Shown here in pieces: positions 15,270 to 34,776 of a stretch of DNA of 64,000 bases (its first letter is position 1; each line of letters starts with the position of its first letter). The position numbers were made by a program, and so were the translations under genes. Source of the stretch: Erysipelothrix urinaevulpis (GTDB lineage Bacteria > Bacillota_I > Bacilli_A > Erysipelotrichales > Erysipelotrichaceae). The DNA lies in NCBI RefSeq assembly GCF_009828835.1, contig NZ_WTTB01000004.1, positions 124,001-188,000 on the forward strand. Reading direction: 5' to 3'. The notes under the pieces are model-generated. The model saw only the letters and a list, made by a program, of their open reading frames with translations. It was not told where the DNA came from and made no database searches.

Positions 15270-16955
15270 ATGAGCAAAACGCTATATCTAAATCGCAACA
15301 CAGCAATTATAAACTTTAATCAAGGATTTCCTGGGCAAACAGTTAGTATTATTAATAGTGAGTCTTATAAGACGCTATTAACAGCATTTATCAACCAAAC
15401 CTCAAGACATGCTCGTCGACGTATTGAAGCATACACAGGTGAGGATGTTGTGAATGAATTAATTGAATTCACCCGTCAACTTCATGTTTATAACCTTGAA
15501 GATATTAAACATCCTTTAAGTAATAATCTTGAACTGGTGGAACGACTCATTGAAGAAATTTATGAATACTGGCGTAATTACCAACGATGTTCAGTCTTAC
15601 ATCTTGGAAAAAAATCACCATCTCAAACCGTTAATTTTATTGCTAAAGACACTGAATTTAATGGTCGTATTCTTGCATTCTATCGTAGTTTACAAGAAAA
15701 AGTTCAAGGGCGTAAAAATAAAATTTACCGACAATTGAAAGCTGGTACCAATGCATCAGTATCAGTTATTGAGAAAGCATCACAAATACCAAGTCAATAT
15801 GACAGTTTTAAAAACATACTCTTTGTTGATTCTGTTTTATTACACTCACCCCTTATTTTACATCCGAAAACAAATAAACGTGAGGGACATTTCCAAGAGA
15901 CATTCGAAAACCCAATCGAGAATCTGTGGTTATCAAAGGACGATTTTTACTGTTATCCAGCTAAAGTAGGTAGCTTACTCGCTTTTGTTTACTTTCACAA
16001 AGATTTTATTTTCTCAGGTTTATCTTTGGCTAACTTATTTGAACTTGCGACAACAGAAGAAATTGCTGAACGAAAACCAGATATCATGGTTGTTTTTGGA
16101 CACAAAGAAGATAGCGATGAAATGGTCTTTCACTACGATAAAGAAAATGAAATGGTCGTATCAAAGGTTGCTTACCAAGAAAAAATCGAATATTTTGGTT
16201 ACATGAAGAAAATGATTCTTACGAGTTTCAACGTTGCAATGATGCATCGTTCTTATTTACCAATCCATGGTGCCATGGTCAATATTTACTTAGAGAACAA
16301 AGAAAAATATGGTGTTGTTTTCATGGGTGATTCAGGCGCTGGAAAATCAGAGATCATTGAAGAAATTGGTAACCTAGGCGACGATAAAATTGATCATATC
16401 GATGTTATCTTCGATGATATGGGAGTTTTCATGAACCACGATGGAACAATCGTTGCGCAAGGATCAGAAGTTGGAGCGTTTGTTCGTCTCGATGATTTAG
16501 ATCGAGGTCTACCATATCAAGCAATGGACAGAAGCATCTTCATGAATCCTGAGTCAAGCAACAATGCACGGGTTATTATTCCGATTTCAACCCATCTAAC
16601 CGTTTCAAGTGATCATACGATTGATTATTTCTTCTATGCCAATAATTATGATGACAAGATTGGTGTTAACTTCTTTGATGATTTAGATGAAGCAAAAGCA
16701 ACGTTTGTTGAAGGTAAACGGATGGCTAAAGCCACAACACATGAAGTAGGTATTACAAAATCCTATTTTGCTAATCCATTTGGACCACTCCAAAAACAAG
16801 AAATGTGTGATGTCTTGATTGATGAATACTTTACAACATTACAACAGAATGGGGTAAAACTTGGGGAAGTCTATACAAACCTAGGTGTTGAAGGTCGAAA
16901 TGAACAAAGTTTAAAAGATTCTGCTCAAGCCGTTCTTGATTTATTAACAAAATAA
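15270..16955 (+). CDS. HprK/PEPCK-superfamily P-loop protein
   Basis: A 561-residue cytoplasmic protein. The C-terminal half has the fold signature shared by HPr kinase and ATP-dependent PEP carboxykinase: IHGAMVNIY, P-loop GDSGAGKSE (353-361), an acidic IFDDMGVF metal-site strand and TKSYFANPFGP near residue 497. The roughly 300-residue N-terminal part is not recognised. Databases often label such proteins PEP carboxykinase, but it lacks a standard PEPCK layout, so a kinase or another phosphotransfer activity is equally possible. The ATG follows AGAGGATG. A MepB gene follows after 4 bp. Confidence 0.75.
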   Translation: MSKTLYLNRNTAIINFNQGFPGQTVSIINSESYKTLLTAFINQTSRHARRRIEAYTGEDVVNELIEFTRQLHVYNLEDIKHPLSNNLELVERLIEEIYEYWRNYQRCSVLHLGKKSPSQTVNFIAKDTEFNGRILAFYRSLQEKVQGRKNKIYRQLKAGTNASVSVIEKASQIPSQYDSFKNILFVDSVLLHSPLILHPKTNKREGHFQETFENPIENLWLSKDDFYCYPAKVGSLLAFVYFHKDFIFSGLSLANLFELATTEEIAERKPDIMVVFGHKEDSDEMVFHYDKENEMVVSKVAYQEKIEYFGYMKKMILTSFNVAMMHRSYLPIHGAMVNIYLENKEKYGVVFMGDSGAGKSEIIEEIGNLGDDKIDHIDVIFDDMGVFMNHDGTIVAQGSEVGAFVRLDDLDRGLPYQAMDRSIFMNPESSNNARVIIPISTHLTVSSDHTIDYFFYANNYDDKIGVNFFDDLDEAKATFVEGKRMAKATTHEVGITKSYFANPFGPLQKQEMCDVLIDEYFTTLQQNGVKLGEVYTNLGVEGRNEQSLKDSAQAVLDLLTK

Positions 16956-24210: not shown

Positions 24211-25468
24211 GATTTATGACATCTTCCAATTTAGAATCACCATGATGAACCTGCATCATCGTCAAGAAAGCAACGAGTAAAAAGAAAGCAGCATAGGGAA
24301 ATAATATTTGATAACCAATCATATCAAACAATAAGCCCGATAAAATGGGAGTTATAATTTGAGCTGACATTGAAAAGGTATAGTAAAGACCCGTATATTT
24401 ACCAATATCATCTCCACTTGCCATTTCGAGAACCATGGGTAATGAGTTTACGTTAATCGCTGCCCAAGCAAACCCTGCTAAAAGGAAATTACCAAACATT
24501 AAAGGCGTAAACTGACGATACAGTCCAGCAGTTCCAAAGGCAAAGGTTAGGACAACAACACCGACAAGAATCATTTTTTTACGACCAATCTTTTCTGACA
24601 TCTTTCCAATCGGAATAAATGATAGGATTGCTCCTACATTTGCGATGAGTAAAACAGTGGAAGCTTGTGATCCTGTAAAACCAATTTGAATCGTTGCATA
24701 TCGAGAAAATGCAGAGATAACAGCATTGTACCCCATAAACCAAAGGGCAATGGAAAGTAGAAGAAAGATCATTGAACGACGAACTTCTTTTGCCATCTTT
24801 ATTCCTGTACTATCTGTCTTCTCTTCATCACTTAGATCGATTCCAAGTTCTAAAGAAGTTTCTTGCATTTCTAAGGACCACTGTTTTTCATTGACCGTAA
24901 AGACCATCACTAACATAGCAATCAAGATAAAGGTTGCGACTGCAATAAACAATCGATGATAGGACCCCATTTTATCAGGACTCAATAAACTAATCATCAC
25001 TAAGACCACTACACCACCAACTGCCCCCATTAAATTAATGATAGCATTAGCACCTGACCGAAGTGGCTTGATTGTAATATCTGGCATTAAGGCCACTGCT
25101 GGTGTGCGATAGGATGCGACAGACAACAACACCAATGCTAACCCCAAAGCAAACGCAATAAAATTACGGGCTTCAGCGGCATAAGGAATAATAATCATAG
25201 AAATAATCGTTAAAATCGAACCGACGACAATGTAGGGCATTCTTTTCCCGTACTTCGTATCTGTTTTATCAGACAATGCCCCAAAAAAAGGTAACAATAA
25301 CAGGGCAAGTATGTTATCCAATGACATGACGACCCCTGCCCATGTATCAGAAATCATAAATTCATTTTTCAAAATTAATGGAATGACAAAATCATAAAGT
25401 TGCCAAAAACCTGAAATTGTCATAAACGCTAAACCAACTAAAAAAGTTCGTTTTGTATTTAATTTCAT
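24203..25468 (-). CDS. MFS transporter
   Basis: A 421-residue carrier with 12 predicted helices. Loop motif GALSDKTDTKYGKRMPYI (loop 2-3) and GKMSEKIGRKKMIL (loop 8-9) are typical of the major facilitator group, close to the SLC45/GPH-like sugar carriers. The ATG at 25468 has AGAGGAGG 5 nt upstream; an in-frame TTG further up was rejected. Coupled to the GDPD gene. Confidence 0.88.
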   Translation of the reverse strand: MKLNTKRTFLVGLAFMTISGFWQLYDFVIPLILKNEFMISDTWAGVVMSLDNILALLLLPFFGALSDKTDTKYGKRMPYIVVGSILTIISMIIIPYAAEARNFIAFALGLALVLLSVASYRTPAVALMPDITIKPLRSGANAIINLMGAVGGVVVLVMISLLSPDKMGSYHRLFIAVATFILIAMLVMVFTVNEKQWSLEMQETSLELGIDLSDEEKTDSTGIKMAKEVRRSMIFLLLSIALWFMGYNAVISAFSRYATIQIGFTGSQASTVLLIANVGAILSFIPIGKMSEKIGRKKMILVGVVVLTFAFGTAGLYRQFTPLMFGNFLLAGFAWAAINVNSLPMVLEMASGDDIGKYTGLYYTFSMSAQIITPILSGLLFDMIGYQILFPYAAFFLLVAFLTMMQVHHGDSKLEDVINHA

Positions 25469-25531: not shown

Positions 25532-26164
25532 TCATGAAGTCTTAACAATCAAAACTCCACACAAGATAATCGATAACATTAAAAACAACAACCAATATAA
25601 GCTCTGATTAATCACTGCAAGATTCAAAGCAACGTTATCTATTTTACTGAGTTTAATATGTTGTTTAACCCAAAAGTTAGCCCAAACTTCCATAAAGACA
25701 ACCATCAACCAGTGCAATATTTGAACAAGCGTCAATAGCACCAACAACCATTTTAAAATAAGGTATCCTTTAGGAAAAAAGAAACTCACAACACCACTCA
25801 ATAAACTTAGAATTAATAAACCATATAACCCCATTTTTAATGCAATAAAAAGTTTCAAGATAATTGACGTCTTGATGGATCGAAACGTATGTGCATGACC
25901 AAGTTCATGCGCAATACTCAATCTATCTTGAATGGTATAATTTTCTTTTTTTATAATGGAAATCGACTGATCAATACTGTTACACGAATAGTGTTGATCC
26001 TCTTTTACCTCTATCTCTTCATATGTGTTAAGCCACAGCTTTATATCATGATAACTCCATTGTTCGTGATTATTTGCATCCTTTTTAATCCACTGATGTT
26101 GGACAAACTCTAAGAGTATGATGACAATCAATAAAATCCCCAACAGAACTTGAATCCAAATCAT
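25532..26164 (-). CDS. Membrane zinc metallopeptidase, YugP-like
   Basis: A 210-residue membrane protein with an N-terminal helix (WIQVLLGILLIVIILL), a HELGH zinc motif in SIAHELGHAHTF, and two or three further hydrophobic helices. This matches the Zn_peptidase_2 (YugP) family. Substrate unknown. It overlaps the DUF4886 gene by 4 bp. Confidence 0.8.
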   Translation of the reverse strand: MIWIQVLLGILLIVIILLEFVQHQWIKKDANNHEQWSYHDIKLWLNTYEEIEVKEDQHYSCNSIDQSISIIKKENYTIQDRLSIAHELGHAHTFRSIKTSIILKLFIALKMGLYGLLILSLLSGVVSFFFPKGYLILKWLLVLLTLVQILHWLMVVFMEVWANFWVKQHIKLSKIDNVALNLAVINQSLYWLLFLMLSIILCGVLIVKTS

Positions 26165-26880
26165 TGATGACCTGAAACCACTTCTTTTACTAGAATATTT
26201 GTCAGTTCTAATACTTGAGGTGTCAGTGTCGTTATGATGTCAGTTTTAGTGGCTTCTGGATAAAAAAAGTATAACCAGATAAGCGCTCCTACATACTTAC
26301 CAAACTCTGTATTAAGATGATACCCATCTAGACACATTGGAATGTCTTGCAACTCTTTTGTTTCTCTAATCACAGAAACAGCATCCGCCGCCAAGATAAC
26401 ATCAAGCCCTTCACGTTTTTGAATTTCTTTGGCAGTTTGATCAATCATCTCATTCATCCTTTGCTGAGAATGATCATAGTGACCATAACTCTCATGATCA
26501 CAGTCCTTTTCATATGACCATGTTTTATGTAAAACAAGACGTGCTTGGGGTTGATGTTTTTTTAAATAATCAATTAATTCATTGATGTATGGATAATAGG
26601 TCTTAATTAAGCCACTCTCACCCGAAAATTGTTGGAGTGTTATAACATCCCACGGTTCACTTAACACAGTCCTTAAGCCAACCTTTTTTTGACATATTGC
26701 ATCAACTTGATATTCATACACTTCCTCATTTGTTTGTAAATTATGAGCATGAGTTTTGAGCGAACAACCTGGAATATATAAGTTCACAACCTGTGCATCG
26801 TAATGATTTAATGCAAATAAACGATTTAAATTTTCAGTAGTATTCATTGAAAAACTATTACCAATTGCTAAAATTTTCAT
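26161..26880 (-). CDS. DUF4886 (SGNH-like) protein
   Basis: A 239-residue protein beginning ILAIGNSFSMNTTENLNRLF, the DUF4886 signature in which GNSFS resembles the SGNH block I nucleophile. A late DGYHLNTEFGKY block matches the Asp/His end of that fold. Probably a hydrolase or esterase with unknown substrate. No signal peptide. First gene of a pair with the YugP-like protease. Confidence 0.82.
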   Translation of the reverse strand: MKILAIGNSFSMNTTENLNRLFALNHYDAQVVNLYIPGCSLKTHAHNLQTNEEVYEYQVDAICQKKVGLRTVLSEPWDVITLQQFSGESGLIKTYYPYINELIDYLKKHQPQARLVLHKTWSYEKDCDHESYGHYDHSQQRMNEMIDQTAKEIQKREGLDVILAADAVSVIRETKELQDIPMCLDGYHLNTEFGKYVGALIWLYFFYPEATKTDIITTLTPQVLELTNILVKEVVSGHQ

Positions 26881-26973
26881 TCTACACCATCCTTATTAAC
26901 TATATTATAAGCCTTTATCATGGCATTACCATGATTATCTTGCTAAGTCTTTTAACAATTTAGAGGATAAGTA

Positions 26974-27002
26974 TTTACAACACTGAATCAGTGTGCTAGT
27001 AT
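26974..27002 (+). promoter_or_regulatory. Promoter with operator in the spacer
   Basis: TTTACA (26974-26979) and TAGTAT (26997-27002) are 17 nt apart. Almost the whole spacer is a perfect dyad, ACACTGA-A-TCAGTGT (26980-26994). A repressor bound there would block RNA polymerase. It drives the ABC exporter genes; the regulator is not encoded next to them. Confidence 0.75.
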
Positions 27003-27035
27003 AGTTAGGACAGTGATACAGGAGGAAGTATTAAG

Positions 27036-27941
27036 ATGAAAAAAGCAATTGATATTAAAAACCTAAATAAATACTACGGAAAATTTCATGCATTAAATGA
27101 TGTTTCATTAAGTGTTTATGAAGGGGATATTTACGGGCTTATTGGAAAAAATGGTGCCGGTAAAACAACATTATTTAAACAAATTTTAGGGCTTTCAAAT
27201 TACCAGGATGGTGATGTGAGCATTCTCAGTAGTACATCTGAAGATCAACTAAGAAAAGCAAGAAAAGACATTGGTTTCTATATAAACTCTACTTTTTTTC
27301 CTTATCTTAGCGCAAAAGAAAACCTTGAATATTTTAGAATTTTAAAAGGAATTGAAGATAAAGATGAGGTTGATCGCGTTCTAAAAATTGTTGAATTAGA
27401 TAAAGTTAATAAAAAATATAAATCTTTTTCAATGGGAATGAAACAACGTCTAGGAATCGCGAATGCTATCATGGGAAATCCTAAAATTGTAATCTTAGAT
27501 GAGCCAATTAATGGTCTTGACCCTCAAGGAATTGTGGATATTCGTAATCTAATTAAAAAGTTAAATAAAGACTATAACATGACCTTAATCGTATCATCCC
27601 ATATCCTGAATGAGTTGAGTTTAATTGCCACTCGTTTTGGAATGATCGATCATGGTGTTTTACTAAAAGAAATTACCAGCGACGAATTGCAAGAACAGAA
27701 GGACTCAATCATGATTCATACAAATAAATATGACCAAACATTGAAATTTTTGGAAAACAATGCAGTTACGACTATCATTAACCAAAACAATGAGAATGAA
27801 ATTCAAGTCACAACGTCACTTGAAGCAGATTTACTTTTAAAACAATTAATGCAACATGACTTAGGGATTGAAGAATTTTACTTCCATAAGAGCAGTTTAG
27901 AAGAATTCTACTTTTCATTAACTGAAGGAGGAATTAAATAA
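27036..27941 (+). CDS. ABC transporter ATP-binding protein (BcrA-like)
   Basis: A 301-residue ATPase of the bacitracin/antibiotic-exporter type: Walker A GKNGAGKTT, signature FSMGMKQRLGIA, Walker B IVILDEPINGLDP and the switch His in SSHILNEL. The last 80 residues form the variable domain of BcrA-like proteins. AGGAGG lies 8-9 nt before the ATG. Its stop overlaps the permease start (TAATG), so the two form one exporter, perhaps for lantibiotic or peptide defence. Confidence 0.93.
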   Translation: MKKAIDIKNLNKYYGKFHALNDVSLSVYEGDIYGLIGKNGAGKTTLFKQILGLSNYQDGDVSILSSTSEDQLRKARKDIGFYINSTFFPYLSAKENLEYFRILKGIEDKDEVDRVLKIVELDKVNKKYKSFSMGMKQRLGIANAIMGNPKIVILDEPINGLDPQGIVDIRNLIKKLNKDYNMTLIVSSHILNELSLIATRFGMIDHGVLLKEITSDELQEQKDSIMIHTNKYDQTLKFLENNAVTTIINQNNENEIQVTTSLEADLLLKQLMQHDLGIEEFYFHKSSLEEFYFSLTEGGIK

Positions 27942-28690
27942 TGTTAGGACTATTTAAAGCAGATTTTTACCGTATTACTCATAAACGTTCGTTTTACTAT
28001 TACACGTTATTTTGTACAGCAATGTTTACCATTATTGCCATTATGGCAGGTGGACGCGCTATGTCGGATGGAGCGTTTGCTGATTTTGGTATCATGATGA
28101 TTACCTTATCACCGATGATTATTGGAATCTTTATTTACACACTCTACTTTGGTGATGATATCCGTTACAAAAATGCCCAAGCAACTTTAGGTTATGGTTA
28201 CACTCGAACATCTCTATTACTTTATAAATTTATATTCTTTGTCTTGTTAACCATATCGGCAAGTGCATACTTATTTCTAATTATTTTTGTTAACTCATTT
28301 ATCTTTGGAAAAGTACTTCCTAGCCAAGTTACTAATTCAATGGTTTTAATTAGCATCATGGCATCGTTAAAAACAATAATATTTGCAACACTTTCAAATA
28401 TTATTCTTTACAAGACTCAACAAACATCTGCCAGTACTGTGGTTTTCGTTATGCTAGCAACGTCAACATTAAATATGCTTTTAGGTCTTTTACTCGGACA
28501 AAACTTCATTATCAATGTTATTGGTAATCTTACGCCTTACCTGGCAACTACCCTTAGCAACACTGTAATGAATGAATGGATGGCTAATGGAATAGGCTAC
28601 TCAAGCAACTTATTAATCTTATTGGGTTATATTCTAATATCCTTAACTGCAGCAGTGTTCTTATTTGAAAAGAAAGAACTAGAATTCTAA
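27941..28690 (+). CDS. ABC transporter permease
   Basis: A 249-residue membrane protein with six predicted helices, typical of the ABC-2 permeases that pair with BcrA-like ATPases. Translationally coupled to the ATPase. The last 94 bp of the gene are present again at 31153-31246 as part of the large direct repeat. Confidence 0.88.
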   Translation: MLGLFKADFYRITHKRSFYYYTLFCTAMFTIIAIMAGGRAMSDGAFADFGIMMITLSPMIIGIFIYTLYFGDDIRYKNAQATLGYGYTRTSLLLYKFIFFVLLTISASAYLFLIIFVNSFIFGKVLPSQVTNSMVLISIMASLKTIIFATLSNIILYKTQQTSASTVVFVMLATSTLNMLLGLLLGQNFIINVIGNLTPYLATTLSNTVMNEWMANGIGYSSNLLILLGYILISLTAAVFLFEKKELEF

Positions 28691-28697
28691 TCCACAT

Positions 28698-28735
28698 AAA
28701 AAAACAGCTAACTTCAATCGTTTAGCTGTTTTTTT
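28698..28735. terminator. Bidirectional terminator (left copy)
   Basis: AACAGCTAA and TTAGCTGTT form the stem, with runs of A and T on the two sides. It ends the exporter operon and is duplicated at 31254-31291. Confidence 0.85.
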
Positions 28736-28739
28736 GTGT

Positions 28740-28984
28740 CTATTTTTTTATGTTCAATTTTCCCAGACAATTCTCGTTGTTGTTATTATTATTCGATCGA
28801 GCACAAACCTTATTGTCTTCTAAATTTAAATATAACCAATCTTCATCAATTCCATTTTTATTCGTACTTTGAATAAAGATAAAATCGCCTGCTCCCATCA
28901 AATCAAAAAGCCAAAGATTCTGATCAACTTTTTCATTCTTGTCTCTAAAATAACTTTTCACTTGTGGATCAGTATCTGAACTGA
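28740..28984 (-). pseudogene. 3' fragment of the lipoprotein gene (duplicate)
   Basis: Encodes the same C-terminal residues as the intact lipoprotein gene at 31296 (KSYFRDKNEKVDQNLWLFDL and onward) but has lost the signal peptide and N-terminal half. At 28984 the sequence changes to the rep gene. It arose from the 388-bp duplication and is not expected to be expressed. Confidence 0.88.
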
Positions 28985-29730
28985 ATATATTTTTGACTAT
29001 TTGTGCAAGTATTAAAGAAAAAGGAAATGACTTGGTAGTTTATGATTTTAATAAAATAAGAGAATTGGCAAAGTATGATTCTACAAGTGTAGAACGCTTT
29101 GTAAATGACTTAAAATCAACGTATAGTAAACTCCTTGCAACAAATTATACGCTTGATGATGGCGACGTAATTGAATCATTTACTTTATTTAACCATTACA
29201 AGATAATTAGTTCAGAGCAAACTGTTGAAATACAGGTAAACCCTAACTTTAAACACATTCTTAACGACCTAAACTTAGGCAATTTCACTCGTTTTGAATT
29301 GCAAGAATATACCAGCATAAACTCAACCTATTCAAAGGCTCTTTATATGCGCTTAAAACAATGGAAGATTATAGGTAAATGGGAAGTTAATCTTGATGAA
29401 TTTAAACGTGTTATGGCAATACCTGATAGTTATAGAAAGAGTAATATAGACCAAAAAATATTAAATCCAGCATTAAAGGATTTAAGTCCTTATTTTGACA
29501 AATTGAAAATTAAGAAATTAGATATGAATAAACGAGCTAGTGGTCGTGGTCGCCCCGTTAAATACATTCAATTTACATTCACGCCACAAGATGACAAAAA
29601 AGAATGGTTAAAATCAAAAAGAAAAAAGATAAATAAACGACCACAACCAATTTATGATAAATTTGTTTTTGAAGAAATTTCTGATGAACAAATTGAAAAA
29701 ACTGAAGAACTATTAAAATCATTAAAATAG
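28975..29730 (+). pseudogene. Rep_3-family plasmid replication initiator, 5'-truncated
   Basis: About 250 codons matching the Rep_3 (RepB) winged-helix initiator of theta plasmids: ELNIF, TICASIKEKG, FTRFELQEYTSINSTYSKAL, YMRLKQWKIIGKWEV and FKRVMAIPDSYR. Family proteins start some 40-50 residues earlier, and the frame is open only from 28954 with no ATG; a TTG at 28993 is the first possible start and would lose ELNIF. The missing 5' end lies exactly at the repeat junction. No iteron array is seen upstream, so it should be unable to drive replication. Confidence 0.85.
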
Positions 29731-29852
29731 CAAGGGTGTGGGATATCCCACAAATATAAATTATCTTCTGTAAGAAGTAATTTGGTAATGTCCGTACAAA
29801 ACACTGTGATGTTTGTGTACGGACATTACCCTTGCTTGCTATTCGTTTAACC
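29724..29852 (+). repeat. Structured ~129-bp element, copy 1 (oriT-like), inverted relative to copy 2
   Basis: Order: the rep stop codon and AGCAAGGGTGTG, the 16-bp palindrome TGTGGGATATCCCACA (29737-29752), TATAAATTATCTT, a long hairpin (29784-29830; 15-bp stem GGTAATGTCCGTACA with its complement) and CTTGCTTGCTA directly after the stem. A diverged copy lies inverted at 30997-31124. A hairpin followed within a few bases by a conserved short motif is the layout of a conjugation nick site; that role is an inference. Confidence 0.75.
29784..29830 (+). repeat. 15-bp perfect stem hairpin in copy 1
   Basis: GGTAATGTCCGTACA pairs fully with TGTACGGACATTACC; an inner AAACA/TGTTT pairing extends it. 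Five stem positions differ from copy 2 and their partners differ too, so pairing is kept. Confidence 0.85.
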
Positions 29853-29869
29853 CTCATATTATACATAGA

Positions 29870-29909
29870 AATAACACACTGTTGTAACCGATTACAACAG
29901 TGTGTTATT
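29870..29909 (+). promoter_or_regulatory. 18-bp perfect stem-loop in the leader of the secreted-protein gene
   Basis: AATAACACACTGTTGTAA pairs perfectly with TTACAACAGTGTGTTATT around CCGA. It ends about 9 nt before the AAGAGGAGGG ribosome site. TTGCTA (29836) and TTATAC (29859) upstream are 17 nt apart and could place the transcript start close to the stem base, making it a 5' stability or control hairpin. Confidence 0.6.
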
Positions 29910-29933
29910 ATTGATTTAAGAGGAGGGATTTAT

Positions 29934-30791
29934 ATGAGGAAAAAAATGAAGTTTATAAGTTTTGGAATTCTTTGTTTTTTTGTCACAATAATTTCAACTA
30001 TACCGCTATCAGCTGAACATTCGAACCTGAGTACAGAGTATCAAAACTTCATATCTAGAAGAGTTAGGTCATTTTCAAGTTACAATTCTTTGGATGAAAA
30101 TGATATTAAAGAACTGGAGAAACATGATGTAGATAAAGACTTTTACTTGTTTTTTGAAGCGTTTGTAGGAAGTGATTTTACAAATTATATGTCTACAAGT
30201 GAGGGGAGTATTATTATAAATGAAGAATCAAAGGTTCCAATTCTTTTAGACGGATCTATTGAAAATAAATTAATTGTATTAATCGGAGATACACAATATG
30301 CTATAAAACAAGAAGATAATTTATTTGGAAGTAATCTGTTACTAGAACATCATAACGGAAAAAAAATGTATCTCCATGAAGAAACATTTAATAATGCGCC
30401 TGTAAGTAACGAAAATCATAATCCAATGGCCAATGTACGTTCTGGAGCATATTGGAGATCTCCATCTGGTCCTGTTAGAGGGAAAACAGGTTCTTGGCTC
30501 GCTGTTCTATCATTAGCTTTAGAGGCTGTTGGCTGGGTAGGAAAATTCAAGCATCCCGTTGTTGGTACTATATTCAAGGCTGTTGGTTCTGCTGTAACAG
30601 TTGGTTCGTTAGTTTACGTAACTTTATATACTGAAACTTATCAGTCACAAAGAAGTGATTGTAGAACCTATATTCGTCAGCAGACTTTGTACTATAAACA
30701 TAGTAATTATTCGGGTTATCAAAAAACTAGATTCAGTTTCTTCCACAGTGTTCGTCCTGACTATGCTGGTGGATCATGTAGGAAATATTAA
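29934..30791 (+). CDS. Secreted protein, candidate bacteriocin-like toxin
   Basis: A 285-residue exported protein. The start at 29934 follows AGAGGAGGG by 7 nt; the frame is open further upstream but runs through the leader hairpin. Residues 1-24 form a signal peptide (KKMKFISFGILCFF, ending PLSA-EHS). The middle is acidic. From about residue 170 the sequence becomes Gly/Ser/Trp-rich (GAYWRSPSGPVRGKTGSW), then has a hydrophobic stretch (about 190-225) and a basic, Tyr/Arg-rich tail with two Cys. I recognise no family with certainty; some large bacteriocins have this shape. The small membrane-protein gene right behind it fits an immunity partner. Confidence 0.7.
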   Translation: MRKKMKFISFGILCFFVTIISTIPLSAEHSNLSTEYQNFISRRVRSFSSYNSLDENDIKELEKHDVDKDFYLFFEAFVGSDFTNYMSTSEGSIIINEESKVPILLDGSIENKLIVLIGDTQYAIKQEDNLFGSNLLLEHHNGKKMYLHEETFNNAPVSNENHNPMANVRSGAYWRSPSGPVRGKTGSWLAVLSLALEAVGWVGKFKHPVVGTIFKAVGSAVTVGSLVYVTLYTETYQSQRSDCRTYIRQQTLYYKHSNYSGYQKTRFSFFHSVRPDYAGGSCRKY

Positions 30792-30796
30792 TTCAT

Positions 30797-30955
30797 ATGA
30801 AAAAATATATTATATTTCATTCTCTTTTTATTATTTTATTATCAATTATTTCTCTGTCAATAGATAAACTAGATACTTATAGAAAACTGAATTATTTTAT
30901 AATAGGTTTTGTTGTTATTGGTTTAATAAAATTTGTTTTGGATAAAAAAAAATAA
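30797..30955 (+). CDS. Small two-helix membrane protein, candidate immunity protein
   Basis: A 52-residue reading frame starting 5 bp after the secreted-protein stop. It is basic at both ends (MKKY..., ...LDKKK) with two hydrophobic helices (IIFHSLFIILLSIISL and FIIGFVVIGLIKFVL) joined by a short charged turn. Size, topology and position match bacteriocin immunity proteins. The ribosome site is weak (TAGGAAAT, about 10 nt away), so translation may be coupled. No family recognised. Confidence 0.6.
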   Translation: MKKYIIFHSLFIILLSIISLSIDKLDTYRKLNYFIIGFVVIGLIKFVLDKKK

Positions 30956-30996
30956 TTTAACTATCTTAGCTTATTTTTTGATGCATCAAAGTAATA

Positions 30997-31124
30997 GGTT
31001 AAATGAGTAGCAAGCAAGGACTATGTATACACACCAACTCTCACGTGTTTTGTATATACATAGCCAATTTTTTCTTTCAAAAGATAATTTATACTCGTAG
31101 GATATACCACACCCTTACTATTTT
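30997..31124 (-). repeat. Structured ~129-bp element, copy 2 (oriT-like), inverted relative to copy 1
   Basis: Read on the minus strand it gives AGTAAGGGTGTGGTATATCC, TATAAATTATCTT, a hairpin (31018-31065) and CTTGCTTGCTA, in the same order as copy 1. The stem GGCTATGTATATACA pairs with its partner apart from one bulge and one G-T wobble. Loop and spacer have drifted, while the flanking motifs are kept. It stands downstream of the candidate immunity gene, so the pair bounds the toxin/immunity cassette. Confidence 0.75.
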
Positions 31125-31152
31125 TAAAAAACGCCATTAAAAACAGTTGTTT

Positions 31153-31246
31153 CTACTCTAGCAACTTATTAATCTTATTGGGTTATTTTCTAATATCCTT
31201 AACTGCAGCAGTGTTCTTATTTGAAAAGAAAGAACTAGAATTCTAA
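31153..31246 (+). pseudogene. 3' fragment of the ABC permease gene (duplicate)
   Basis: The last 94 bp of the permease gene, ending at the same TAA. It has no start and is a by-product of the repeat. It lies in the 340-bp gap 30956-31295, which otherwise holds element copy 2 and a terminator. Confidence 0.88.
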
Positions 31247-31253
31247 TCCACAT

Positions 31254-31291
31254 AAAAAAACAGCTAACTTCAATCGTTTAGCTGTTTTTTT
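31254..31291. terminator. Bidirectional terminator (right copy)
   Basis: Same hairpin as at 28698-28735. Here it ends the lipoprotein gene on the minus strand. Confidence 0.85.
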
Positions 31292-31295
31292 GTGT

Positions 31296-31736
31296 CTATT
31301 TTTTTATGTTCAATTTTCCCAGACAATTCTCGTTGTTGTTATTATTATTCGATCGAGCACAAACCTTATTGTCTTCTAAATTTAAATATAACCAATCTTC
31401 ATCAATTCCATTTTTATTCGTACTTTGAATAAAGATAAAATCGCCTGCTCCCATCAAATCAAAAAGCCAAAGATTCTGATCAACTTTTTCATTCTTGTCT
31501 CTAAAATAACTTTTCACTTGTGGATCAGCATCTGAACTGAGATCCCACTTTGCTTGATCACCTTCATACCGAAGTCTGATTTGATTCGTGAGAATCTTAT
31601 TTCCTTTTTTTACCTCTATTTGAACATAGTCTTTATCAACTTGTTCGATATTATGATAGGTTATTTTACCTGTATCTTGTGAACATCCTACAAGTAATAA
31701 CACTAAAAGTATACTTAAAACTATATTTTTTTTCAT
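31296..31736 (-). CDS. Small predicted lipoprotein
   Basis: A 146-residue lipoprotein with signal peptide KKNIVLSILLVLLLVGC and lipobox LLVGC. The mature part is hydrophilic with an Asn-rich stretch before a short Cys-containing end. ATG at 31736 is used; the upstream TTG overlaps the AAGGA ribosome site. No family recognised. Its 3' half is duplicated at 28740-28984. Before the insertion it must have lain tail-to-tail with the ABC exporter genes. Confidence 0.8.
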   Translation of the reverse strand: MKKNIVLSILLVLLLVGCSQDTGKITYHNIEQVDKDYVQIEVKKGNKILTNQIRLRYEGDQAKWDLSSDADPQVKSYFRDKNEKVDQNLWLFDLMGAGDFIFIQSTNKNGIDEDWLYLNLEDNKVCARSNNNNNNENCLGKLNIKK

Positions 31737-31821
31737 GGCCCCTCTTCCTTTCAATCAAAATATAATACACTTAAATCCTAATATAATTAAGTTTGGATTT
31801 CAACTCAAATTTTATTCCATC

Positions 31822-31851
31822 AAAAAAGCTATCACGTGTCGTGATAGCTTT
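31822..31851 (-). terminator. Intrinsic terminator of the D-2-hydroxyacid dehydrogenase gene
   Basis: AAAGCTATCACG pairs with CGTGATAGCTTT around a short loop, followed by a T run on the minus strand. Confidence 0.85.
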
Positions 31852-31854
31852 CTA

Positions 31855-32841
31855 TTATTTAATTTCGTATTTGCTTTCGCCTGTTTCAAGGAATGAAGTA
31901 AGTGATGTTAGTGCAACTTCAACCATGTCACTGACTGCTTGATCTGTATAAAATGCACTGTGTGGTGAAACAATCACGTCTTGATGATTCATAAGGTAAG
32001 CTAAATTATGATCTGTTAAACGTGTATTTCGGTGATCTTGGTGAAATACACCCAATTCACCTTCTAAGACATCGAAGCCACATGTAGAAATATGTCCATT
32101 GTCTAAATATTTAATTAAGGCATTGGTATCAATTAATTCACCACGTGATGTATTGATGACAATTAAACCTTTTTTTGTTTTTGCAAATGTTTCTTCATTT
32201 AATAAGTGATGTGTTGATTCAAGTAGAGGTGCATGTAAGATAATCACATCCGCTGTCTCTAATAATTCATCAATGCTTACATAAGTAACAAACTCTTTAA
32301 GTCCTTCGTTTTCAAACACATCTTGTGCGATGATTTTCCCACCAAAGCCTGCCAATTTACGGGCTGTAGAAGCACCAATACGTCCTGTACCAACGATACC
32401 AAATGTTAAGTTATGCATTTCTCGGCCTTGAATATTATTCAATGAGAAATCTTGATTTTCCATTCGTTTCATGACTTTTTTCATGCGACGAACTGCCATT
32501 AGTGTCAACATAACTGTGTAATCAGAAACACAGTCTACTGAATAGGTCGCATTAGAGAATTTAATTCCATGTTCTCGAACTGCTTCCATATCAACGTTGT
32601 TGAAGCCAGCACTTCTTGATGCGAGGTATTTACAACCTAATTCACTTAATGTTGCAATGTTTTCTTTACTTGCATCACAATTCCCTAAAATACTAACAGC
32701 TTCATATCCTTTAGCAAGATGAATGTTTTCACTTGATAATGAACTGTATACTAATTCTACCTCAATATTTAACGCTTTTGAAAAACGTTCAAAGTCTGCA
32801 AGCTCATCAGGTCTTGCGGCATATGCTATAATTTTTTTCAT
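31855..32841 (-). CDS. D-isomer-specific 2-hydroxyacid dehydrogenase (D-lactate dehydrogenase-like)
   Basis: A 328-residue NAD enzyme. It has ASRSAGFNNVD (substrate-binding loop), the GTGRIG Rossmann loop, NTSRGELIDT (catalytic Arg), and SPHSAFYT (catalytic His). Closest in layout to LdhA/VanH-type D-lactate dehydrogenases that reduce pyruvate or another 2-keto acid. It follows a PTS IIC-like gene by 28 bp, in a unit with a MerR-type promoter, so production under a chemical stress signal is possible. Confidence 0.9.
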   Translation of the reverse strand: MKKIIAYAARPDELADFERFSKALNIEVELVYSSLSSENIHLAKGYEAVSILGNCDASKENIATLSELGCKYLASRSAGFNNVDMEAVREHGIKFSNATYSVDCVSDYTVMLTLMAVRRMKKVMKRMENQDFSLNNIQGREMHNLTFGIVGTGRIGASTARKLAGFGGKIIAQDVFENEGLKEFVTYVSIDELLETADVIILHAPLLESTHHLLNEETFAKTKKGLIVINTSRGELIDTNALIKYLDNGHISTCGFDVLEGELGVFHQDHRNTRLTDHNLAYLMNHQDVIVSPHSAFYTDQAVSDMVEVALTSLTSFLETGESKYEIK

Positions 32842-32869
32842 TTTTTATTTCCTCCCTTTAATGTTAAAT

Positions 32870-33904
32870 CTAATCAAATTTAATTGCGTAGTCTTCATCG
32901 CTTACAAGTTTAACTGTTCGCTTGAAAACAAAATCAAATACAAATCCCATTGCAACAGGAATAGCGATAAATGCTAAAGCTGTAATTAGTAAATTGGACA
33001 TTGTATAACCAACAATATTTAAATGATTGAGTGGTCCAATTAAGCCACTAATTCCAAATCCAGCACTTGCTGGTGTTCCAACAATATTTAGAATTCCTGC
33101 AAAAGCGCCACAAACTGCCGCATTCGCAATAATTGGTATCATCATGCTTGGCTTTTTAATAAAGTTTGCCATTTGCATTTTTGGTGATCCTAAGAAATGA
33201 GCAATACTTGTTCCAAAACCATTTTGTTTGTAACCTGAAATTGCTAATCCAAAACCAGCTGCACAAATTCCTAAGTTCGCTGCGCCTGATCCAACACCAC
33301 TTAAACCAATGGTTAAAGCAACACCCGCTGTAGATAACGGTGAAACAATCATCACAGCAAAGGTAACACTAATTAAAATTCCTGCAACGATAGGTGTTAA
33401 ATCCGTAAACTGAGAAACCAATGTTCCCACAAGTCCTGTTAGTTGAGAAACAACTGGTAAAAGTACAAATAATCCTAAGCCACCAATGACTGTCGTCACT
33501 AAGGCCGGAACAACAAGGATAGTATACGCTTTTAGACGATTACCAATCAGTTGAATTGCAAAGACAGCAAGACCAGCAACAATCCCTGCATTCACAACAT
33601 CACCAATACCAACTAATGTTAAGCCAGTTTCAGTAAAACGCATAACTCCTGAACCAATGGCGGTTGTAATTGCAAGTGTTCCCGATTGAATTGGGTTTAA
33701 TTTGAATTGCATTGCAATCGTTAATCCCATAATAACCGGTAAAAGGCTTGTCGCCATTCCCGTTAATTGAGCCACTTTTGTCCATTCAAACGCTTTGGCT
33801 AATTCCCCTAATAATGCACCGGGTATCAGTGCAACAACAATACCAACACTCATTCCTGTTAGTACTTTGTTTGTAAATTCTTTAAATCCTATTTTGTTTT
33901 CCAT
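32870..33904 (-). CDS. PTS IIC-like transporter (PTS_EIIC_2 family)
   Basis: A 344-residue polytopic membrane protein with about ten helices. It starts FKEFTNKVLTGMSVGIVVAL and has MQFKLNPIQSGTLAITTAIG, typical of the EIIC_2 family. Substrate unknown, and no IIA or IIB partner lies nearby, so PTS coupling is uncertain. Cotranscribed with the dehydrogenase gene and placed just after a MerR regulator. Confidence 0.82.
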   Translation of the reverse strand: MENKIGFKEFTNKVLTGMSVGIVVALIPGALLGELAKAFEWTKVAQLTGMATSLLPVIMGLTIAMQFKLNPIQSGTLAITTAIGSGVMRFTETGLTLVGIGDVVNAGIVAGLAVFAIQLIGNRLKAYTILVVPALVTTVIGGLGLFVLLPVVSQLTGLVGTLVSQFTDLTPIVAGILISVTFAVMIVSPLSTAGVALTIGLSGVGSGAANLGICAAGFGLAISGYKQNGFGTSIAHFLGSPKMQMANFIKKPSMMIPIIANAAVCGAFAGILNIVGTPASAGFGISGLIGPLNHLNIVGYTMSNLLITALAFIAIPVAMGFVFDFVFKRTVKLVSDEDYAIKFD

Positions 33905-33929
33905 GTGAAGAAAACCCCCTTACACCTAA

Positions 33930-33960
33930 AATCTAAACTATGACCTTAGGGTAGAGTAAA
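33930..33960 (-). promoter_or_regulatory. MerR-type promoter with 19-bp spacer
   Basis: Minus-strand TTTACT (33955-33960) and TAGATT (33930-33935) are separated by exactly 19 nt, and the spacer holds a rough dyad (CTACCCTAAGGTCATAG). A 19-bp spacer is the hallmark of promoters untwisted by MerR regulators. The regulator encoded next to it is the likely partner. Confidence 0.65.
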
Positions 33961-33966
33961 GTGATT

Positions 33967-34776
33967 TTATCGAACTTTTACCTGATATTGTTGAATCATT
34001 TCATCCTCTGAATTTGTAAAAGTATAATCAACTAAGCAAAAATCAAGAATCGGTCCATCAACCTCATACCCTTCATTTTTAATCCACTCTAAAAACTCAA
34101 TAAGCGCTTGTTTACTGTGGTATCCGCCCTTTTTATACATACAAACATATTTCCCTGAGGGCAATATTTGCTCTGTATTCATCCTTAACCCATCAGATAA
34201 TCGGATAAAAGACCCCGCTTTTTCATCAATATTTAACGGATCAGGGTAGATGGTACCATACTCCATTTGTGAAAAAATGTCTTTTTCAATCAACTCTCTG
34301 AGCAAAACCCTATATGCAAGCATGATATTTTTTTTGCTTACATTTCCCTCACTCACCGATAACGCTATTCGTCGTTCATCAAATAATTTGATTGCAGGTT
34401 TATTTAAATCTCGTTCATCTAAATGTTGGACACGATCATAAAATGATAACAAAAACTCCAAATCTTTTTTTCTTTGTGAGATTAATTTAAATTCTTTTTC
34501 AACTTGTTGGTGGCGTTCTTTTAAATTACCAATTAAGTAATCAAAATCTCTTGTTTCCAACATTTGTTTTATTTCGGTTAATGTAAACCCTAAGTCTTTA
34601 AAGTATATAATTTGTTTTAGATAAGGAAATTGCTTCCGTGAATAATAGCGATACCCTGTTTCTTCATCACTATACTCTGGAGAAAAAAGCCCAATCCGAT
34701 CATAATAATGAAGTGTTTTACGTGTAATCTTGTGTAAATTAGCAACTTCATTAATTAAAAACATCTCTTCATCCAT
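33967..34776 (-). CDS. MerR-family regulator with GyrI-like effector domain
   Basis: A 269-residue regulator of the BmrR/TipAL layout: HTH at residues 8-75 (INEVANLHKITRKTLHYYDR), a coiled coil to about 125, then a GyrI-like ligand domain to the end. ATG at 34776 has GAGG 8 nt upstream; an upstream GTG overlaps that site. It probably senses a drug-like or hydrophobic ligand and controls the PTS IIC-like/dehydrogenase genes through the 19-bp-spacer promoter that follows it. Confidence 0.88.
   Translation of the reverse strand: MDEEMFLINEVANLHKITRKTLHYYDRIGLFSPEYSDEETGYRYYSRKQFPYLKQIIYFKDLGFTLTEIKQMLETRDFDYLIGNLKERHQQVEKEFKLISQRKKDLEFLLSFYDRVQHLDERDLNKPAIKLFDERRIALSVSEGNVSKKNIMLAYRVLLRELIEKDIFSQMEYGTIYPDPLNIDEKAGSFIRLSDGLRMNTEQILPSGKYVCMYKKGGYHSKQALIEFLEWIKNEGYEVDGPILDFCLVDYTFTNSEDEMIQQYQVKVR

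What the first reader, a model, noticed from the sequence alone, without database searches (positions are those of the whole stretch)
29724..31124. Two inverted copies of a structured element with covarying stems frame a gene pair
The elements at 29724-29852 and 30997-31124 share order: AAGGGTGTGG, a palindromic box, TATAAATTATCTT, a 15-bp hairpin, then CTTGCTTGCTA. Five stem positions differ between the copies and each change is balanced on the other arm. That is strong evidence that the structure itself is under selection. The hairpin-plus-motif layout suggests an oriT or a relaxase/recombinase site. Two inverted copies around a toxin/immunity-like pair suggest the cassette could be moved or inverted by a trans-acting relaxase, similar in principle to RSA-site recombination by Mob/Pre proteins.
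Basis: partly seen in the sequence, partly recalled or inferred. Interest (0 to 1): 0.75.

Follow-up and report, generated by a model that had tools for sequence, protein, structure and literature searches.

The report
Paired transfer origins on plasmid remnant
Two facing copies of a hairpin site look like start points for passing DNA to another cell by mating; they sit in a small plasmid remnant lodged in a bacterial chromosome, and similar sites on other small plasmids suggest that these could borrow another element's transfer enzyme.

Summary
Element A (29724-29852, +) and element B (30997-31124, -) are 78% identical inverted copies; in their 15-bp stems five pairs changed on both sides, two on one side to G.T, none is broken. 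They are most likely origins of transfer (oriT) for a MOBP (MobA/VirD2-type) relaxase with a NikA/MobC partner. A covariance model built without the window, from sites beside such relaxases, finds only A (30.9 bits, E 1.1e-5) and B (19.9 bits, E 0.0066) in the window. The core GCTTG|C agrees with published nic sites of Tn1549, pRS01 and pRJ6. Of 71 strong relaxases in 272 genomes, 53 have such a site within 2.5 kb. No such relaxase was found in the window's genome, so mobilisation would be in trans. Opposite-strand pairs have a precedent in S. aureus (PMC4652767) and make up 11 of 13 two-site records seen here. The pair lies in a chromosomal remnant of a small Rep_3 plasmid. Nicking is untested.

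The parts
29724..29852 (+). Element A: putative oriT (copy 1)
   Evidence: Inverted repeat with B; covariance model R2, built without the window, hits 29732-29842 at 30.9 bits, E 1.1e-5
29737..29752 (+). Upstream palindromic box of A (TGTGGGATATCCCACA), candidate binding site of a NikA/MobC-type accessory protein (inferred)
   Evidence: Sequence; helix 1 of R1/R2 covaries in relatives
29758..29783 (+). Middle hairpin of A
   Evidence: DNA fold
29784..29830 (+). Long hairpin of A; conserved 15-bp stem 29784-29798 / 29816-29830
   Evidence: helix 2 of R1/R2
29831..29841 (+). Core CTTGCTTG|CTA of A; predicted nick between 29838 and 29839 on the + strand, 8 bases after the stem
   Evidence: Position; nic strings from PMC7755788 and the pRS01 nick in PMC4256276, which is also 8 bases after its hairpin
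30997..31124 (-). Element B: putative oriT (copy 2), inverted relative to A
   Evidence: R2 hit 31007-31115 (-), 19.9 bits, E 0.0066
31019..31065 (-). Long hairpin of B; 15-bp stem 31065-31051 / 31033-31019
31008..31018 (-). Core CTTGCTTG|CTA of B; predicted nick between 31011 and 31010 on the - strand
29934..30791 (+). Exported 285-aa protein of unknown function (cargo; first gene on A's leading strand)
   Evidence: ORF; no Pfam or NCBIfam hit at a curated cut-off; the only other match in 272 family genomes is a 64-residue C-terminal stretch, 47%
30797..30955 (+). 52-aa hydrophobic protein (cargo; possible partner of the exported protein, inferred)
   Evidence: ORF; Pfam and NCBIfam hits only below cut-off
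28993..29730 (+). Replication initiator of the Rep_3 family, lacking its N-terminus
   Evidence: PF01051 E 4.3e-17 from profile position 25, PF21205 E 2.4e-11; 73% DNA identity to the pAP1 rep region
28985..31152 (.). Plasmid-derived insert
   Evidence: Lies between two copies of a 388-bp chromosomal segment; GC of 28987-31152 is 30.1% against 34.0% for the window
28597..28984 (.). Left copy of the chromosomal direct repeat
   Evidence: 99% identical to 31153-31540; three mismatches, at 28603, 28631 and 28973
31153..31540 (.). Right copy of the chromosomal direct repeat

Best explanation
Both elements are origins of transfer of the MOBP type. A NikA/MobC-like accessory protein would bind the upstream palindrome; a MobA/VirD2-type (PF03432) relaxase would recognise the long hairpin, cut the strand 8 bases 3' of it at GCTTG|C (A: 29838|29839 on +; B: 31011|31010 on -), stay bound to the 5' end and lead that strand through a conjugation channel. 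From either site the two cargo genes would enter the recipient first. No such relaxase was found in this genome, so an integrative conjugative element or plasmid would supply it in trans. The pair belonged to a small Rep_3 plasmid, a piece of which is now in the chromosome with its replication gene cut short. The two sites may persist because they are on opposite strands (same-strand pairs can be deleted by the relaxase), and their different hairpins may fit different helpers. Shown: sequence, structure, covariation, model match, linkage to relaxases in relatives, nic-site agreement. Inferred: binding, nicking, transfer, helper identity, reason for the pair.
For: R2, built without the window, gives A 30.9 and B 19.9 bits as its only hits at E<=10 in 64 kb with default filters; A is the only hit at E<=0.01 in the window's own 1.9-Mb genome. 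R1, from 18 plasmid sites, hits 23 of 30 relaxase loci of the family at E<0.1; in 20 of the 23 the site is upstream of the relaxase on the opposite strand. In 272 genomes 53 of 71 relaxases of at least 70 bits have an R2 hit within 2.5 kb. In G012 (same genus) the site lies just before a NikA/MobC gene and a relaxase. In a Priestia conjugative plasmid it lies upstream of a NikA-like gene (25.2 bits, just under Pfam's cut-off of 27) and a relaxase. Both helices covary (20 both-sided cells against 5.5 shuffled; 70 against 21.2, on an alignment fitted to the structure). The core agrees in GCTTG|C with nic of Tn1549, pRJ6 and pRS01; the pRS01 nick, 61 bases into the printed oligonucleotide, is 8 bases after its hairpin, as predicted here. 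Opposite-strand pairs: 11 of 13 two-site records and the S. aureus precedent.
Against: R1, the plasmid-only model, scores A at just 12.4 bits (E 0.15) and B at 10.1 (E 0.71), below an unrelated place at 16152 (14.7 bits). B folds weakly alone and is not in the genome-wide list at E<=0.01. 70 of 122 R2 hits are not within 2.5 kb of a relaxase, and 18 of 71 strong relaxases have no R2 hit nearby. R2 was trained on 22 family sites; 21 of them are among the 52 hits counted as near a relaxase (hand count), so part is by construction. The window differs from Tn1549's nic string at its first letter (R there, T here) and from pRJ6 and pRS01 after the C. No PF03432 relaxase was found in the window's genome (92.8% complete). 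Two records carry same-strand pairs, against the survivor argument. E-values of the home-made models are rough.
Confidence: 0.87

Rival explanations
1. The two elements are the ends of a cassette that a relaxase or another single-strand recombinase moves or inverts, with 29853-30996 as cargo.
For: Inverted flanking copies whose similarity runs a few bases past the hairpins; two other genomes have a convergent pair around a single TnpV gene.
Against: 22 of 33 loci with an R1 hit show a single site (several loci are only parts of records). Nine of the eleven close pairs face outward, 152-187 bases apart, with no annotated gene lying wholly between them in the eight that are annotated (one hypothetical gene overlaps the gap in L025). 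No second copy of the cassette in the genome.
Confidence: 0.06
2. Structured RNA or transcription terminators (A after rep, B after the 52-aa gene).
For: A begins at the rep stop codon and B follows the last cargo gene; strong hairpin in A.
Against: No Rfam match at gathering score; no T-run after the hairpins; conserved core 3' of the hairpin and a recurring place beside relaxase operons in relatives.
Confidence: 0.04
3. Single-strand (sso) replication origin or multimer-resolution site of small plasmids.
For: Several carriers are small plasmids with no relaxase gene listed, some with an initiator annotated 'protein rep' (that these are rolling-circle plasmids is recalled).
Against: The same site lies beside relaxase operons on a conjugative plasmid and in genomes, and on plasmids with Rep_3-type initiators, which are not thought to need an sso (recalled).
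Confidence: 0.03

Closest known systems
oriTs with nic RYGCTTG|C, TGCTTG|CCA, CTTG|CA (Tn1549, pRJ6, pRS01)
   Same: GCTTG|C core; in pRS01 the nick is 8 bases after a hairpin, as predicted here; relatives of the window's site are linked to a PF03432 relaxase plus NikA/MobC
   Different: 15-bp stem with a long loop, an extra middle hairpin, T where Tn1549 has R, CTA where pRJ6 has CCA; no relaxase found in the genome
pWBG749-family oriTs on relaxase-less S. aureus plasmids (relaxase in trans; PMC4652767, passages)
   Same: Inverted repeats forming a branched hairpin before a core; carried on plasmids without mob genes; pairs on opposite strands; pair members often differ in a repeat
   Different: Core there is CTTATGCTCTT; staphylococci; free plasmids rather than a chromosomal remnant; here two same-strand pairs were seen among 13 two-site records
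RSA / oriT sites of Mob/Pre (MOBV, pMV158)
   Same: Hairpin site acted on by a relaxase (recalled)
   Different: Different relaxase family; no test with a MOBV site was run here

Membership tests
MOBP-type oriT, nic class GCTTG|C | Core GCTTG|C | tested here: met
   CTTGCTTGCTA in both copies against nic strings in PMC7755788 and PMC4256276; first letter differs from Tn1549's R
MOBP-type oriT, nic class GCTTG|C | Hairpin just 5' of the core, conserved in pairing more than in letters | tested here: met
MOBP-type oriT, nic class GCTTG|C | Upstream inverted repeat | tested here: inconclusive
   Good palindrome in A; imperfect in B
MOBP-type oriT, nic class GCTTG|C | Match to a model from relaxase-linked sites that holds no window sequence | tested here: met
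   R2: A E 1.1e-5, B E 0.0066; weak with the plasmid model R1
MOBP-type oriT, nic class GCTTG|C | Cognate relaxase in the same element or genome | tested here: not met
   No PF03432 match in G000 at E<=1; one in G012 of the same genus with the site upstream. Not a defining feature of relaxase-in-trans plasmids
MOBP-type oriT, nic class GCTTG|C | Strand-specific nicking and transfer | not testable with these tools
   Needs bench work
Relaxase-in-trans plasmids with paired oriTs (pWBG749 type of arrangement) | No mob gene; two oriTs on opposite strands; different hairpins | tested here: met
   No relaxase gene among the insert's ORFs; rule from PMC4652767 passages. The plasmid is only partly preserved
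pWBG749 oriT family itself | Core CTTATGCTCTT | tested here: not met
   Core from PMC4652767; not in either element as read
Described RNA families | Match to an Rfam model at its gathering score | tested here: not met
   0 matches in the window
MOBV (Mob/Pre) RSA-type oriT | MOBV oriT sequence and linked mob/pre gene | not tested
   No search with a MOBV site was made

The most novel reading that the evidence does not exclude
Inverted pairs of unlike oriTs are a selected unit, not only survivors: two sites of different specificity let one small element be moved by two helper families, from either strand; and where a pair frames a gene (the window's cargo; the TnpV gene in two other genomes) it acts as the ends of a relaxase-driven cassette that can enter chromosomes and leave oriTs there, making chromosomal DNA transferable.
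Probability: 0.08. Interest if true: 0.8.

Novelty: new member of a known kind. Interest (0 to 1): 0.5.

Why it matters
It gives sequence-and-structure models that find likely transfer origins on plasmids labelled non-mobilizable, including carriers of bacteriocin-like, tet and cfr(D) genes, and points to the kind of relaxase that could move them. If oriTs also sit in chromosomes, as here, a visiting helper could in principle mobilise chromosomal DNA. The tendency of paired oriTs to lie on opposite strands, published for one S. aureus family, appears in a different core class, with exceptions.

Tried and rejected
Rejected: the 33-base match in G005 (it lies before what looks like an ssb gene by eye, and R2 does not hit that locus). 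E. raffinosus hits (E 5) and the six phage records (E 0.7 to 9). The pAP1 cruciform at 1790-1902 was first thought to be the same element; R1 and R2 do not hit pAP1 and it has no GCTTGC. Homology of the 285-aa protein to three bacteriocin-plasmid proteins: no meaningful alignment (the names dysgalacticin and SA-M57 for the pW2580 and pDN571 genes are recalled, 'geobacillin-26 family' is the annotation). No relative of it in plasmids or viral contigs.

Led nowhere: pattern scans of viral contigs and the first of genome contigs found nothing. An empty insertion site could not be shown: among 13 genus genomes only G000 holds the flanking DNA apart from two matches of 32-34 bases. The second genome-contig scan gave 30 stretches, of which 13 had an R1 hit at E<=0.01, one of these probably chance; a home-made relaxase HMM hit none of the 30. 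Rep relatives were found in two other genomes of the 272; R2 did not hit those loci or the whole 4.2-kb contig of one of them.

Searches show a Vagococcus contig (L126 and L129 are its two parts) with two sites on one strand about 7.5 kb apart, and searches place two same-strand sites on V. lutrae plasmid NZ_CP116509.1. The count is now 11 of 13. I left the odds as they were, because the oriT reading does not rest on that rule.

Full report
What is in the sequence. The stretch holds a Rep_3 replication initiator whose N-terminus is missing (28993-29730; PF01051 matched from profile position 25), element A (29724-29852, +), an exported 285-aa protein (29934-30791), a 52-aa hydrophobic protein (30797-30955) and element B (30997-31124, -). 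The whole lies between two copies of a 388-bp chromosomal segment (28597-28984 and 31153-31540), 99% identical with three mismatches. The left copy starts inside an intact permease-like gene (27941-28690) and ends in a shortened copy of a lipoprotein-like gene; the right copy starts in a shortened copy of the permease end and runs into the intact lipoprotein-like gene (31296-31754). The insert (28985-31152) is therefore best read as a piece of a small plasmid lodged in the chromosome.

The observation. A and B match at 78% over about 128 bases. In the 15-bp stem before CTTGCTTGC, five pairs are changed on both sides, two on one side to G.T, eight are unchanged and none is broken; random placement of as many substitutions kept all pairs in 1 of 200,000 trials. 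A folds strongly as DNA (z -9.9), B weakly (z -1.46).

From the window to a family. A weak blastn hit of A's 3' arm and core in a Vagococcus plasmid (E 5) turned out to have the same layout. A search from that site matched 31 plasmid records, and one from a Streptococcus agalactiae site 97; both were run to E 10 and include weak and unrelated records. The shared plan is a palindrome (TTAGGA..TCCTAA), CAAG, an optional hairpin, a hairpin (GGGTTTGT..ACAAACCC) and the core GTTGCTTGCC. On 18 such sites both helices covary: 20 both-sided cells against 5.5 in shuffles, 0 of 500 as high.

The link to relaxases. On a Priestia conjugative plasmid the site lies directly upstream of a NikA-like gene (25.2 bits, just under Pfam's cut-off of 27) and a PF03432 relaxase (94.8 bits). 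I searched 272 genomes of the window's family with that relaxase; 43 had a match. Of the 30 loci taken, 23 had a hit of R1 (the model from the 18 plasmid sites) at E<0.1; in 20 of these the site is upstream of the relaxase on the opposite strand, and in L050, L056 and L060 it is not. Of the seven others, L034, L045 and L054 show a similar site by eye, L045's downstream of the relaxase, and L046 has a weak hit (E 1.4). Of the 24 sites printed, 12 read GCTTGCTA, as in the window, and three read GCTTGCC. In G012, of the window's genus, the site lies just before a NikA/MobC gene (PF21983 and PF05713, both over their cut-offs) and a PF03432 relaxase.

Testing the window. R1 scored the window poorly: A 12.4 bits (E 0.15), B 10.1 (E 0.71), below an unrelated place at 16152 (14.7 bits, E 0.032). 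R2 was built from 24 R1 matches: 22 loci of the family, the Priestia site and one stray partial match on the Priestia site's other strand; no window sequence was included. On the 23 sites so aligned, 70 both-sided cells stand against 21.2 in shuffles (0 of 500 as high); the number of pairs with a both-sided change, 11, was reached by 10 of 500 shuffles, and the alignment is fitted to the structure. With R2 the only hits in the window at E<=10 are A (30.9 bits, E 1.1e-5) and B (19.9 bits, E 0.0066); with filters off over 26000-34000 three more places score 4.8 to 7.6 bits. Across 272 genomes R2 gave 122 hits at E<=0.01 in 67 genomes; A was the only one in the window's genome, and B was below the cut. 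Of the 122, 52 lie within 2.5 kb of one of 92 PF03432 matches over the cut-off (one borderline row was left out), 44 upstream and 41 on the opposite strand; 70 do not, most of them on contigs with no relaxase match. By my hand count 21 of the 52 are training sites, leaving 31. Of 71 relaxases of at least 70 bits, 53 have an R2 hit within 2.5 kb and 18 do not.

The core. A published table lists nic as RYGCTTG|C for Tn1549, TGCTTG|CCA for pRJ6 and CTTG|CA for pRS01 (PMC7755788, passages of its appendix tables). For pRS01 the relaxase LtrB cuts a 96-nt oligonucleotide to give 61 nt (PMC4256276, passages); base 61 of the printed sense strand is the last G of TATGCTTG, and the nick is 8 bases after a perfect 8-bp hairpin. 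The window's cores read CTTGCTTG|CTA directly after the stem, giving predicted nicks 8 bases after it, at 29838|29839 (+) and 31011|31010 (-). The agreement is GCTTG|C: Tn1549's first letter R is T here, and the letters after C differ from pRJ6 and pRS01. The S. suis 89K island, a MobC plus MobA system, has a predicted nic CTCG/CAAA, also 8 nt from its inverted repeat (PMC3132442, passages).

Why two, and why inverted. In S. aureus, plasmids with two pWBG749-type oriTs invariably carry them on opposite strands, most multi-oriT plasmids (58/67) carry different subfamilies, and same-strand sites were seen to recombine with loss of DNA (PMC4652767, passages). Here, of 51 loci searched with R1, 33 had a hit at E<=0.01 (L115 is probably chance), 11 of them two hits, and these 11 pairs are inverted: nine facing outward, 152-187 bases apart, and two facing inward, 15 and 129 bases apart, one member of the first weak (23.9 bits). 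These plasmids are partly related, so they are not 11 independent cases, and some loci are only parts of records. Two records break the rule: a Vagococcus contig (parts L129 and L126) has two sites on one strand about 7.5 kb apart, and V. lutrae plasmid NZ_CP116509.1 has same-strand sites at 24260-24340 and 2576-2658. So 11 of 13. In the 272 genomes, of eight neighbouring R2 pairs within 10 kb, seven are on opposite strands and one on the same. The window's pair fits the published tendency; pairing in itself does not show that the genes between are a mobile cassette.

How it would work. Shown: the anatomy, the covariation, the model match, the relaxase linkage in relatives, the agreement of the core. 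Inferred: an accessory protein binds the palindrome; the relaxase cuts at the core; the strand leaves with the two cargo genes first from either site; a helper supplies the proteins in trans. The genome itself gave no PF03432 match (92.8% complete). With rep shortened, the remnant is unlikely to replicate, and a nick in place would mobilise chromosomal DNA; PMC4652767 cites mobilisation from cryptic chromosomal oriTs.

What is new. My searches did not turn up a description of this site or its pairs in streptococcal, enterococcal, Vagococcus or Erysipelotrichaceae plasmids (a library of open papers, seen as listings, with passages of six papers; figures and supplements were not seen). The kind of thing is known: relaxase-in-trans oriTs, often in opposite-strand pairs. 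Hence 'new member of a known kind', with moderate interest.

Noticed in passing
window 28597-28984 and 31153-31540: A 388-bp chromosomal segment is duplicated on both sides of the plasmid-derived insert, with three mismatches; how so long a duplication arose is unexplained.
   Followed up: partly
window 29870-29909: Perfect 18-bp inverted repeat with a 4-base loop between element A and the exported-protein gene; operator or terminator, not studied.
   Followed up: no
L094:573-1321 and L095:149-900: Two genomes of one other genus in the family carry a convergent pair of R2 sites (core variant GCTCGC) around a single TnpV gene (PF14198), near what look like tRNA genes; possibly a tiny mobilizable element.
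   Followed up: partly
L016, L017, L018, L019, L024, L025, L026, L027, L123: Eight plasmid records and one S. suis contig carry outward-facing site pairs 152-187 bases apart; 7 of the 8 plasmids are typed non-mobilizable in PLSDB and one conjugative, and some carry resistance or bacteriocin-like genes.
   Followed up: partly
L129:7409-7475 with L126:6965-7030; NZ_CP116509.1 2576-2658 with 24260-24340: Two Vagococcus records with same-strand sites several kilobases apart, exceptions to the opposite-strand tendency.
   Followed up: partly
L004:1790-1902 (pAP1): A 19-bp closing stem with an inner 17-bp hairpin in the small Erysipelothrix plasmid pAP1; not matched by R1 or R2, function unknown.
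   Followed up: partly
L099:2400-2523 (G005): An R2 site in a genome of the same genus that gave no PF03432 match, near what looks like an integrase gene by eye, close in sequence to the G012 site.
   Followed up: partly
window 16152-16225: R1 hit of 14.7 bits, higher than elements A and B with that model, lacking the GCTTGC core; probably chance.
   Followed up: no
G201:C17, G172:C16, G170:C25, G235:C7: Outward-facing R2 pairs 5.4-7.6 kb apart with a relaxase between them, in four genomes (partly alike); may bound a transfer region.
   Followed up: no
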